A stretch of 64,000 nt of DNA from Streptomyces sp. Q6 (GTDB taxonomy: Bacteria; Actinomycetota; Actinomycetes; Streptomycetales; Streptomycetaceae): NCBI RefSeq assembly GCF_036967205.1, contig NZ_CP146022.1:4774001-4838000 (forward strand). The letters are read 5' to 3'. The position numbers and the translations under genes were made by a program. The notes under the pieces are model-generated. The model saw nothing but the letters and a program-made list of their open reading frames with translations, did no database searches and was not told the origin of the DNA. This document shows, one piece after another, positions 37,445 to 40,207 of the stretch (position 1 is its first letter; every line of letters starts with the position of its first letter).

Positions 37445-37539
37445 TCACGAACGTGTTCCTCATCATCGTCACCGCCATGGCTCTGTACGCCCTCGGCTCC
37501 GTCGCGGTGTGCCGCCTGACCAAAGGGGGCTCCCGATGA
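37441..37539 (+). CDS. Tiny membrane protein
   Basis: A 32-residue product, MITNVFLIIVTAMALYALGS then VAVCRLTKGGSR: one transmembrane helix and a basic tail. GTGA overlaps at the start and ATGA at the end support translation. Function unknown. Confidence 0.55.
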   Translation: MITNVFLIIVTAMALYALGSVAVCRLTKGGSR

Positions 37540-38105
37540 TCAGCACCGAGACCAGGCGCGGCTACCTGCTCGCCGACTCGCCGTGGCCGACGGCCGGCCG
37601 GAACACCGTCCGCAAGGACTTGAAGGCGCTCGCCGCCGACGGGTTCCTGCACGGGTGCGACCGCAGCGGCCGCCGTACGTACCTCGTCGACCGGTTCTGG
37701 GCCAAGGTCCAGATCGGCACGGCCGACGAGTGCTGGCCGTGGACCGCAGCCGTCAACCCCAAGACCAGGTACGGGCAGTTCCGCGTCGGCGCCACGATCC
37801 GCGGAGCGCACACCATCGCTGTCGTGTACCGGCACGGGCCCGTCCCCGTCGGGCACGTCGTCGACCACTTGTGCCGCACCCGGACGTGCGTCAACCCGCA
37901 CCACCTCGACGTCGTGACGATCGCCGAGAACACACGTCGCGGCATGGCGCCCACGGCTGTTGCCGCCCGCGAGAACCGGTGCACGAACGGCCACGAGTTC
38001 ACGCCCGAGAACACGATCGCCAAGGGCGACGGACACCGGCGCTGCCGCCAGTGCTTCAACGCCTCGCAGCGCGCCCGGTACGCGGCGAAGGCGGTGGCGG
38101 CGTAG
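37536..38105 (+). CDS. HNH endonuclease, homing-type
   Basis: A 189-residue nuclease. A short winged-helix-like start (RNTVRKDLKALAADGFLHG) precedes the HNH_3-type core DECWPWTAAVNPKTRYGQFR, HVVDHLCRTRTCVNPHHLDV, TIAENTRRG. The C-terminus carries a zinc-finger-like CTNGHEFTPENT...CRQC. This layout is typical of free-standing phage homing nucleases. It lies immediately before the replication gene. Starts at ATG 37536, overlapping the tiny membrane gene. Confidence 0.85.
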   Translation: MISTETRRGYLLADSPWPTAGRNTVRKDLKALAADGFLHGCDRSGRRTYLVDRFWAKVQIGTADECWPWTAAVNPKTRYGQFRVGATIRGAHTIAVVYRHGPVPVGHVVDHLCRTRTCVNPHHLDVVTIAENTRRGMAPTAVAARENRCTNGHEFTPENTIAKGDGHRRCRQCFNASQRARYAAKAVAA

Positions 38106-38243
38106 TGCAGCACCTCGAGCGCCGCCGACTCCGCGACGCGTTGGCCGCCTCGGCTTTGTAGCCGCACCGCACACGGCCCCGGGGCGGGGTGACCACACGC
38201 ACCCCCGCCCTGGGACGACCACCCCATAGAGAGAAGCCGAGAG

Positions 38244-39065
38244 TTGAGCACAGAGGAGCAGGGGTCGGCGGGCGGCAGCGTCCCGAACTCGTTCGGGAAC
38301 GCGCTCGCGTGGAAGTGGGTGCGCACCATGCCCGCTTCTCTGCGCCGAGGCGGGTTCCTGACCCTGCTCTACGCCCTGCGTGCCATGGCCAACGCATCGG
38401 GCGAGTTGCGGTTCCACGGGGACCGGAAGCCCATCCGCATCAAGGACTTGGCCGCTGCTGCCGGGGCCGACGAGAAGGACGCGCGGCGCTACCTCGAGGC
38501 CGCGCAGCGGGCGGGTGTGGTCGTCGTCATCGGTGAGCAGCGGCGGGGACGGTCGACCCTGTACGCGATCACGCTCTCTCCGTTCCCTGACTGGGCGGCG
38601 GCGGCCGCACATCTCGACAGCACCAAGCGCGTCCGCGTCCAGAAGCCGGCGCCTTGGGCCGACCAGAAGAACGGGGGTCCAACCCCCGAACTTCGGAGCC
38701 CTGAGAACGGGGGACCGACCCCCGAACTTTCGGGCCCGGCTGAGGAGAAAGAACGGGGGTCCAACCCCCGACCGAGTTCGGGGGACCAACCCCCGTTTGG
38801 TTCGGGGGTCCAACCCCCGAACAACCCAGGGAGTACCCAAGAGGGTTCCCAAGAGGGGGCGGGGCCGGTCCTTCCACCTCAGGTGGATGGGACCTCGAGG
38901 TCTGAAAAGACCGAGCCCGACCAAGAGGACAAGCCCCACGACAAGCAGGCCGCCGACGACTTCGTCCGCTGCGCCAGCTGCCTCCGGCCGATGATCCCCC
39001 GCCCCGGCCGCACCACCCACCGCGACTGCCCCACCGTCGTCTCCTCCGAGAGGACCGCGTCATGA
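38244..39065 (+). CDS. Replication initiator-like protein with helix-turn-helix; contains putative origin
   Basis: A 273-residue protein. The N-terminal 110 residues contain a helix-turn-helix (FLTLLYALRAMANASGELRF, IRIKDLAAAAGADEKDARRY, LEAAQRAGVVVVIGEQRRGR). Residues of about 140-200 are low complexity (GGPTPEL repeats) because the DNA here is a set of palindromic iterons. The C-terminus has a Cys pair, RCASCLRPMIPRPG and HRDCP. A DNA-binding head followed by iterons inside the gene is the layout of lambda O-type initiators. Start is TTG 38244. The 138-bp gap before it has no gene beyond a doubtful 18-codon frame at 38105. Confidence 0.7.
   Translation: MSTEEQGSAGGSVPNSFGNALAWKWVRTMPASLRRGGFLTLLYALRAMANASGELRFHGDRKPIRIKDLAAAAGADEKDARRYLEAAQRAGVVVVIGEQRRGRSTLYAITLSPFPDWAAAAAHLDSTKRVRVQKPAPWADQKNGGPTPELRSPENGGPTPELSGPAEEKERGSNPRPSSGDQPPFGSGVQPPNNPGSTQEGSQEGAGPVLPPQVDGTSRSEKTEPDQEDKPHDKQAADDFVRCASCLRPMIPRPGRTTHRDCPTVVSSERTAS
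38672..38819 (+). repeat. Five 17-bp palindromic iterons, putative phage replication origin
   Basis: The unit CGGGGGWCCRACCCCCG occurs at 38672-38688, 38708-38724, 38754-38770, 38779-38795 and 38803-38819. The only differences are T/A at position 7 and A/G at position 10. Arms CGGGGG/CCCCCG are perfect; flanks often carry GAAC or TTCGG. Start-to-start distances are 36, 46, 25 and 24 bp. They lie inside the initiator gene, as lambda ori lies inside gene O. Confidence 0.75.
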
Positions 39066-39268
39066 CGCCACAGGAGCGGCTCGCCGCCGAGGAGTTCCCC
39101 ACCGGCACGTTCGGCCACGCCCGATCCGCGCGCCAGCCCGCCCGCCCCGGCCCCACGTGGACCGCCGAGGAGCAGGCGCAGCACGTCGCCGACATGCTCG
39201 CCGACCTCAACCGGCGCGCCAGCAAACGCCGCACCCACCTCCGCGTCATCGAGGGCGAGGCCGCATGA
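39062..39268 (+). CDS. Small phage protein, unknown function
   Basis: A 68-residue helical, basic protein (TWTAEEQAQHVADMLADLNR, RASKRRTHLRVIEG). ATGA overlap with the initiator gene; ends four bases into the next gene. No family recognised. Confidence 0.6.
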   Translation: MTPQERLAAEEFPTGTFGHARSARQPARPGPTWTAEEQAQHVADMLADLNRRASKRRTHLRVIEGEAA

Positions 39269-39471
39269 AGACTCCGTCGATCCGCGTGCAGGGCCTGCGC
39301 CCCGGTCTTCAGGTCCGCGGCCTCGATCGCGGCATGACCCCGGTCGCGGACTGGCTCTGCTCTTGCGGCCACCACGAACGCGCCACCGGCCGGCCGGACG
39401 TACAGCAGCTGGCTGCCCGCGTCGAGGTCGGCACCTGCCCGCACCTCGCAGCAGGAAGCAGGGCCGCCTGA
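39265..39471 (+). CDS. Small phage protein with Cys/His cluster
   Basis: A 68-residue protein with WLCSCGHHE and a later GTCPHL, which could bind one zinc ion. ATGA overlaps at both ends. Function unknown. Confidence 0.6.
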   Translation: MKTPSIRVQGLRPGLQVRGLDRGMTPVADWLCSCGHHERATGRPDVQQLAARVEVGTCPHLAAGSRAA

Positions 39472-39779
39472 TGGCCGAGTTCATCGACTACGCGTGCAGG
39501 CTCGGCGCCCTCCGGGGTCGGCCGATCGCCACCGTGCTGCTGCCCGGCGACTCCCCGCCCCCGACCGCCTTGGGCCCGCGGCGCTGCGTGTGCGGGCGCC
39601 AGCTGCGCGATCCCGTCTCCCGGGCCCGCGGCTATGGGCCGAAGTGCTGGCGGCGCCTACGCGGCGACACAACCACCCGCCGGACCCCGGTCACACCACC
39701 CGCAGCACCCGCCCCCGTCATCGACGGACAGACCGAACTTCCTCTCGCCGAGCACCAACCCACCCTCTGGAGCCTCTGA
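39471..39779 (+). CDS. DUF6011-like zinc-binding protein
   Basis: A 102-residue protein. The core RRCVCGRQLRDPVSRARGYG, then PKCWRRLRG, matches the CxCGRxLxDPxSRxRGxGPxC pattern of the DUF6011 group common in actinophages. The C-terminus TELPLAEHQPTLWSL resembles a short interaction tail. TGATG overlaps link it to both neighbours. Confidence 0.7.
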   Translation: MAEFIDYACRLGALRGRPIATVLLPGDSPPPTALGPRRCVCGRQLRDPVSRARGYGPKCWRRLRGDTTTRRTPVTPPAAPAPVIDGQTELPLAEHQPTLWSL

Positions 39780-40207
39780 TGACCATGGGCCGAGATGAGC
39801 TTTCTGACCTCACCATGCAGGCCATCGCCGCCACGTTGGACCGCAACGCTGAAGAAGCCGCGCGCGCCTTGAGCGAGATCGGTACCCGCGGCAACTCCCG
39901 CGGCATTTACGCGGCCTGCTGCGCGTTCGCCCATCTCGGCAAGGTCGCGCTGACGAAGCTGTACGGCGACCAGGCCCCCGACCTCAAGCGCGGCGACATG
40001 TGGGCCATGGACATTCTTCAGCCCGGCGCCGACCCCCACGACCTGTTCGCCGTCCGGTTCATCGTCGCCTACGCCAACGAGGACCGAGACCAGGTCAACG
40101 CCCTGTTCGACGCGTCGATTGCAGCGGGCCCTGAGGACCACGTGTGTTCGGTCACGCAGCTGCTCATCACCGCCGTGCAGTTGACCAACACCGCCAAGGA
40201 CCAGTGA
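39779..40207 (+). CDS. Phage protein, unknown function
   Basis: A 142-residue, mostly helical protein (MQAIAATLDRNAEEAARALS, YAACCAFAHLGKVALTKLYG). No recognised domain. Start overlaps the previous stop (TGATG). Confidence 0.6.
   Translation: MTMGRDELSDLTMQAIAATLDRNAEEAARALSEIGTRGNSRGIYAACCAFAHLGKVALTKLYGDQAPDLKRGDMWAMDILQPGADPHDLFAVRFIVAYANEDRDQVNALFDASIAAGPEDHVCSVTQLLITAVQLTNTAKDQ

What the first reader, a model, noticed from the sequence alone, without database searches (positions are those of the whole stretch)
38672..38819. Five near-identical palindromic iterons inside an initiator gene: a lambda O-like phage origin
The 17-bp unit CGGGGGWCCRACCCCCG appears five times in 148 bp, varying at only two positions, inside a gene whose N-terminus is a helix-turn-helix. 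Lambda places its origin iterons inside gene O. Spacings of 36, 46, 25 and 24 bp give two upstream and three closely spaced units. The encoded protein segment is low complexity, so the DNA rather than the protein seems to be under selection.
Basis: partly seen in the sequence, partly recalled or inferred. Interest (0 to 1): 0.7.

Follow-up and report, generated by a model that had tools for sequence, protein, structure and literature searches.

The report
Phage replication origin inside its gene
A Streptomyces prophage gene carries five copies of a DNA word that its own protein very probably recognises to start copying the phage, and across about seventy related genes one amino acid of the protein and one letter of the DNA word change together.

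Summary
In detail: five exact copies of CGGGGGWCCRACCCCCG lie at the stated places and nowhere else in the 8.95-Mb genome. They occupy all three reading frames of one prophage ORF (38244-39065), so selection acts on the DNA. Of 62 distinct homologues, 60 carry such an array, 61 with a longer duplicate record; gaps are 23-25, 35-39 or 46 bp, about one helical turn apart. The word differs between phages, while copies within a phage are largely alike. An unbiased scan of 145 protein columns picked residue 76, N-cap of the predicted recognition helix, as partner of half-site base 5: Asp-G, Arg-C, Ser/Asn-T. This fits 70 of 71 loci, including 10 of 11 held-out ones. The winged-helix protein therefore very probably binds the array. 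The layout is that of lambda O and pSK41 Rep, but sequence homology was not found, the following stretch is not truly AT-rich, and no P-like partner was recognised. Origin function is inferred. Verdict: an unannotated family of nested phage replicators with a readable specificity code; a new variant of a known kind.

The parts
38244..39065 (+). initiator-like gene, 273 aa, TTG start: winged-helix N-domain, low-complexity linker encoded by the array, Cys-rich C-terminal element
   Evidence: ORF list; TTG-AGC start shared by 7 of 7 homologues read; AF2; no Pfam or NCBIfam model above its cut-off and no convincing PHROG
38280..38633 (+). winged-helix DNA-binding domain, about residues 13-130; recognition helix 77-90
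   Evidence: AF2 secondary structure and pLDDT; fold matches to winged-helix proteins
38469..38471 (+). codon of residue 76 (Asp), the proposed specificity residue at the N-cap of the recognition helix
   Evidence: top of an unbiased scan of 145 columns against iteron bases; locus table
38672..38688 (+). iteron 1, frame 2
38708..38724 (+). iteron 2, frame 2
38754..38770 (+). iteron 3, frame 0
38779..38795 (+). iteron 4, frame 1
38803..38819 (+). iteron 5, frame 1
38820..38889 (+). lower-GC stretch after the array (candidate opening region), with three CCCARG elements at 38825, 38836 and 38848, 11-12 bp apart
   Evidence: mean GC 0.56-0.60 in the five 30-nt windows that start 0-40 nt after the last iteron in 60 homologues, against 0.65-0.78 in the windows upstream and 0.70-0.76 beyond +100; a second dip to 0.61 at +80; element frequency 2.65 per 62 nt against 0.08 in upstream coding DNA
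38958..39029 (+). C-terminal Cys-rich element (RCxxC ... C), possible Zn ribbon or partner contact
   Evidence: pLDDT about 90 for residues 241-260; RCxxC...R...C in the consensus of 50 homologues; 1 of 50 members matches a zinc-ribbon model; function not tested

Best explanation
This is a phage replication module in which the origin is nested inside the initiator gene. Shown: the DNA array is kept as DNA, in helical phase, across a family of prophage genes, and its base 5 tracks residue 76 of the encoded winged-helix domain. Inferred: dimers of the N-domain bind each imperfect palindrome, one monomer per half-site; the dimers line up on one side of the helix and form an O-some-like complex; this strains and opens the lower-GC stretch just downstream; the C-terminal Cys-rich part, or a host factor, brings in the host helicase, since no phage helicase, primase or polymerase was recognised. 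Nesting the sites in the gene keeps protein and site specificity linked, so phages can switch type as one unit.
For: Array of at least 3 copies in 60 of 62 distinct homologues, 61 counting the longer duplicate L049 of truncated L036. 42 of 60 arrays use three reading frames and 18 use two; the 245 gaps are all 23-25, 35-39 or 46 bp; copies within a locus are 91% identical, between loci 70%. Unbiased scan of 145 columns x 25 base features on 59 loci: residue 76 x half-site base 5 first (NMI 0.96), best other residue 0.57. 71 loci: D-G 42, R-C 20, S-T 7, N-T 1, misfit S-C 1; half-sites R-C 216 of 216, D-G 400 of 418, S/N-T 69 of 90; independent pairs for D/G 6 of 6 on supported branches, p 0.03 (for R/C 3 of 3 in nearly all draws, too few to test). 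Held-out loci 10 of 11. Residue 76 sits just before the recognition helix. Gln at 78 goes with A at base 15 in 7 of 7 loci, other residues with C in 64 of 64. Lower GC after the array. The 62 annotated features of the relative OnionKnight name no helicase, primase, polymerase or other initiator.
Against: No direct proof of binding or replication. The downstream stretch is only relatively AT-rich (60% GC in the window), and smaller dips occur elsewhere in the gene. Cumulative GC skew of OnionKnight shows no clear turn at the array. L106 breaks the residue-76 rule, and 12 of 71 loci are mixed. On the 59-locus tree alone the pairs test was 5 of 5, p 0.06. No sequence homology to a known initiator. 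A transcription regulator with an operator array would show the same co-variation.
Confidence: 0.83

Rival explanations
1. The protein is a transcription regulator and the array is its operator cluster (autoregulation or a roadblock inside the gene), not an origin.
For: Fold matches are mostly winged-helix transcription factors (MarR, CRP, Fur); co-variation shows recognition, not replication.
Against: The array starts 400-495 nt after the domain start, inside the gene, in 60 of 60 arrays; no sigma-70-like promoter in window 38000-39300; no further exact site in the genome, and OnionKnight has no CGGGGGn5CCCCCG outside gp46, though sites with mismatches exist at about the level of the control pattern; the fixed position just before a lower-GC stretch with its own phased elements fits an origin better.
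Confidence: 0.1
2. The palindromes act as RNA hairpins (attenuator, stability or termination elements).
For: Three terminator-like matches against 0.9 expected in shuffles, all three at iterons, two of them on the opposite strand; GC-rich stems.
Against: Hairpins need not be alike between copies or match a protein residue; in the seven Gln78 loci the 3/15 pair is broken in 33 of 40 copies; no Rfam family; gaps follow the DNA helix.
Confidence: 0.02
3. The array is a partition (centromere-like) or copy-control site.
For: Such sites also use phased repeats bound by winged-helix proteins (established knowledge); a TubR fragment (6tey) is among the fold matches.
Against: The element has an integrase and recognisable head, packaging and tail genes; no partition gene was recognised among the prophage proteins scanned, which were not all of them; no plasmid of 72,556 records carries the domain.
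Confidence: 0.05

Closest known systems
Phage lambda O gene and ori-lambda
   Same: Imperfect-palindrome iterons in the middle of the initiator gene, in all three reading frames, with gaps of 20, 24 and 23 bp; a lower-GC stretch follows; each lambda iteron is an 18-bp inverted repeat bound by two O proteins (passages of PMC6022878).
   Different: No sequence homology; 23% against 60% GC in the 40 nt after the array; longer gaps including 36 and 46 bp; no gene P-like partner recognised; a Cys-rich C-terminal element; family-wide switching of the iteron word tied to one residue.
Staphylococcal plasmid pSK41 Rep (RepA_N family)
RepA-type mycobacteriophage prophage origins
   Same: Actinobacterial phage initiator with an HTH; the origin is thought to lie within or next to repA (passages of PMC7157519).
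   Different: Those prophages are extrachromosomal; no iteron array inside repA is mentioned in the passages seen.

Membership tests
lambda O / ori-lambda | iterons inside the initiator gene, after the DNA-binding domain | tested here: met
lambda O / ori-lambda | iterons are imperfect inverted repeats of about 18-19 bp | tested here: met
   17 bp, mean 6.8 of 8 symmetric pairs in the window; lambda from passages
lambda O / ori-lambda | AT-rich unwinding tract next to the iterons | tested here: inconclusive
   relative GC dip in 60 homologues, but 60% GC against 23% in lambda
lambda O / ori-lambda | sequence homology of the N-domain to lambda O | tested here: not met
   hhalign of the 22-row domain profile against lambda O: probability 0.1%; no O-type Pfam match in 50 members
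lambda O / ori-lambda | helicase loader gene (P) beside the initiator | tested here: inconclusive
   none recognised in the window proteins scanned or named among the 62 features of OnionKnight
lambda O / ori-lambda | initiator binds its own iterons | tested here: inconclusive
   co-variation only; no binding assay
lambda O / ori-lambda | segment is a functional origin | not testable with these tools
   needs a replication assay
RepA_N (pSK41 Rep) | RepA_N domain by profile | tested here: not met
   only FaeA (2), SPOR (1) and Zn_ribbon_SprT (1) matched among 50 members in Pfam at E 0.001
RepA_N (pSK41 Rep) | winged-helix initiator fold | tested here: inconclusive
RepA_N (pSK41 Rep) | binding boxes centrally within the rep gene | tested here: met
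   array inside the gene; pSK41 from passages

The most novel reading that the evidence does not exclude
A family of Streptomycetaceae phages has diversified into replicon types by repeated single-residue switches at the N-cap of the initiator's recognition helix, each followed by concerted rewriting of every iteron inside the same gene despite three reading frames. Mixed arrays (for example D76 with T-type right halves in L014 and L049, S76 with C- or G-type left halves in L031, L032 and L035) are switches caught midway, and the types define which phages can share or must not share an initiator.
Probability: 0.55. Interest if true: 0.68.

Novelty: new variant of a known kind. Interest (0 to 1): 0.58.

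Why it matters
It suggests a function for a gene annotated 'hypothetical protein' in sequenced Streptomyces phages (OnionKnight gp46, Chymera gp45) and locates their probable origin. It also turns an old question, how an initiator and an array of several binding sites change specificity together, into one that can be read from sequence: the residue 76 / base 5 rule predicts the array type of a new phage (10 of 11 held-out loci) and points to intermediate arrays. The nested layout recalls lambda O and pSK41 Rep without detectable sequence homology, which hints at a shared advantage of keeping the origin inside the initiator gene.

Tried and rejected
Cumulative GC skew of OnionKnight: no clear turn at the array, so it neither supports nor refutes. 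Plasmid collection: no homologue. Rfam, window 37500-40000: nothing at gathering scores. Promoter scan: none; terminator-like sites 3 against 0.9, not followed further. tRNA scan of 31000-64000: none. Pfam, PHROGs and NCBIfam gave no family for the initiator; a SPOR hit (E 7e-4, under its cut-off) in one member of 50 was taken as chance. In the PDB second look no replication initiator other than 4pql, 4pt7 and 5kbj was noticed among the 50 rows shown; absence there is not evidence. Papers: nine searches showed no listing that reports this origin or the residue-base rule; the library holds open-licence PMC papers only and mostly listings were seen. Papers seen as passages: PMC7466680, PMC7157519, PMC5703833, PMC6022878; all others as search listings.

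Rows dropped: 88 loci with the domain gave 62 distinct (identical first 330 nt merged). L094 has no array. L036 is cut by its contig end; its duplicate L049 was added only. L092 was left out of the co-variation sets because its register was off by one. L109 (fragment, no array) and L157 (40-bit relative whose five-copy array could not be put in register; Ser at 76) were not scored. Sequences are related: the effective number at 80% identity is 39 for 59 loci. In one search the lines headed by a column named c77 are for residue 77, a slip of mine; one search gives the table for residue 76. My notes speak of residue 77 at first and of 127 scanned columns; one search shows that 145 columns (residues 3-147) were scanned. 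Held-out gaps are slightly wider than in the first set (26, 28, 45, 47 and 48 also occur; L117 shows 4 copies with a 49-bp gap). The genome tallies count the window's own genome and, where drawn, the genome of L094.

Full report
1. Observation. The five copies are exactly where stated and are the only exact matches in the 8.95-Mb genome. They lie in a TTG-started ORF, 38244-39065, 273 aa, at codons 143-192, in frames 2,2,0,1,1. With all three frames used, the repeats cannot be a by-product of protein repeats.

2. Setting. The genome is of the same genus as that of L007, whose contig equals one titled Streptomyces griseoviridis (L040), so the host is a Streptomyces. The window holds a siphovirus-type prophage (type inferred from its genes): integrase (PHROG 2.9e-20), two HTH regulators, an HNH endonuclease directly upstream of the gene, and further on terminase, portal, protease, major head protein and tape measure. 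In the sequenced relatives OnionKnight and Chymera the homologue is a 'hypothetical protein' some 7-8 genes' length downstream of repressor and excise, in the early region. OnionKnight's 62 features name no helicase, primase, polymerase or other initiator.

3. Family. Homologues of the N-domain were taken from phages, IMG/VR and bacterial genomes. The domain was found in 17 of 295 and 20 of 392 genomes drawn from the genus, 14 of 392 from the order, 14 of 395 from the family, in 3 of its 17 genera, and 4 of 394 from the class, in 1 of 137 genera; the draws overlap and include the window's own genome. All bacterial hits seen are from the window's family, which for a Streptomyces is Streptomycetaceae. 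No plasmid record holds the domain.

4. The array is conserved as DNA. 88 loci gave 62 distinct genes. 60 of 62 hold at least three copies of a 17-bp word found without using the window's consensus; L036, cut by its contig end, is completed by L049 (five copies, gaps 25, 46, 25, 24); L094, a shorter ORF that ends with the domain, has none. Copy numbers are 5 in 45 of 60, 6 in 9, 4 in 4, 7 in 1 and 3 in 1. All 245 gaps are 23-25 (147), 35-37 (52), 38-39 (4) or 46 (42) bp: steps of roughly one helical turn. 42 of 60 arrays use three frames, 18 use two. Copies within a locus are 91% identical and copies between loci 70%. So number, place and phase are largely kept, the word changes between phages, and the copies of one phage change together.

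5. The word follows the protein. For 59 loci, 145 alignment columns (residues 3-147 of the window protein) were scored against 17 iteron positions and 8 symmetrised half-site positions. Residue 76 against half-site base 5 (position 5 and the complement of 13) came first with NMI 0.96; the best other residue was 78 against base 15 at 0.57. If this were only linkage of neighbouring DNA, many columns should score alike. On a tree built without columns 76 and 78, residue 76 and base 5 each change nine times. The rule (Asp-G, Arg-C, Ser/Asn-T) was then applied to newly fetched loci: 10 of 11 scorable loci fit, and L106 (Ser76 in a diverged helix, array CGGTCC) does not. All 71 loci: D-G 42, R-C 20, S-T 7, N-T 1, S-C 1; eleven changes each; 6 of 6 independent D/G pairs agree on supported branches, p 0.03; 3 of 3 for R/C in 196 of 200 draws. 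By half-site: Arg-C 216 of 216, Asp-G 400 of 418, Ser/Asn-T 69 of 90. Twelve of 71 loci are mixed, by 1 to 4 of about 10 half-sites. Gln78 goes with A at base 15 in 7 of 7 loci; there the 3/15 pair is broken in 33 of 40 copies.

6. Structure. AlphaFold (50 sequences) gives a confident winged helix up to residue 126-130, a low-confidence linker over the array-encoded part, and a small confident C-terminal Cys-rich element. The recognition helix is 77-90, so residue 76 is its N-cap, where a base contact is plausible. Foldseek and VIA-align match winged-helix regulators and plasmid initiator domains without a clear winner; the viral library's best matches are mostly phage HTH proteins and include a replication protein O (E 5e-4) and a GpO N-terminal protein (E 2.7e-3). 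Some aligned lengths there carry large rmsd, so only the fold class is claimed.

7. Downstream. GC falls to 0.56-0.60 just after the last iteron in 60 homologues. Elements of the form CC[CA]A[ATG]G stand at +4/5 (57 of 60), +14-17 (47 of 60) and +27/28 (51 of 60), 2.65 per 62 nt against 0.08 upstream, and the middle one shifts by a base between lineages, so that its reading frame and the encoded peptide change. These may be a second set of contacts in the opening region; this is inference.

8. Mechanism. Shown: DNA-level constraint, phasing, concerted change, and one-residue co-variation. Inferred: dimer binding, assembly on one face, opening downstream, recruitment of the host replisome. The nearest working models are lambda O (passages of PMC7466680 and PMC6022878; record features) and pSK41 Rep (passages of PMC5703833). 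Sequence membership in the lambda O and RepA_N families was tested and not met, so I claim 'works like', not 'is'.

Noticed in passing
window 38825, 38836, 38848: Three CCCARG elements 11-12 bp apart follow the array; similar triplets stand at the same offsets in most homologues (all three in 41 of 60) even where the encoded peptide differs.
   Followed up: partly
L014, L049, L031, L032, L035 (arrays after the domain): Arrays whose left and right half-sites belong to different types, possible intermediates of a specificity switch.
   Followed up: partly
L106: Ser at residue 76 but a C-type array (CGGTCC), the only misfit; base 4 differs too and residue 77 is Gln.
   Followed up: no
L157: A very distant relative (40 bits) has a five-copy palindromic array of a different word (TCCGCACGTGCGGA) with gaps 36, 45, 23, 22.
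   Followed up: no
L094: A relative of the domain at the end of a shorter ORF without any array; perhaps a paralogue with another role.
   Followed up: no
window 38244: The unusual TTG start followed by AGC is shared by 7 of 7 homologues whose start was read.
   Followed up: partly
window 38958-39029: C-terminal Cys-rich element conserved in the family with high model confidence; candidate contact for the host replisome.
   Followed up: no
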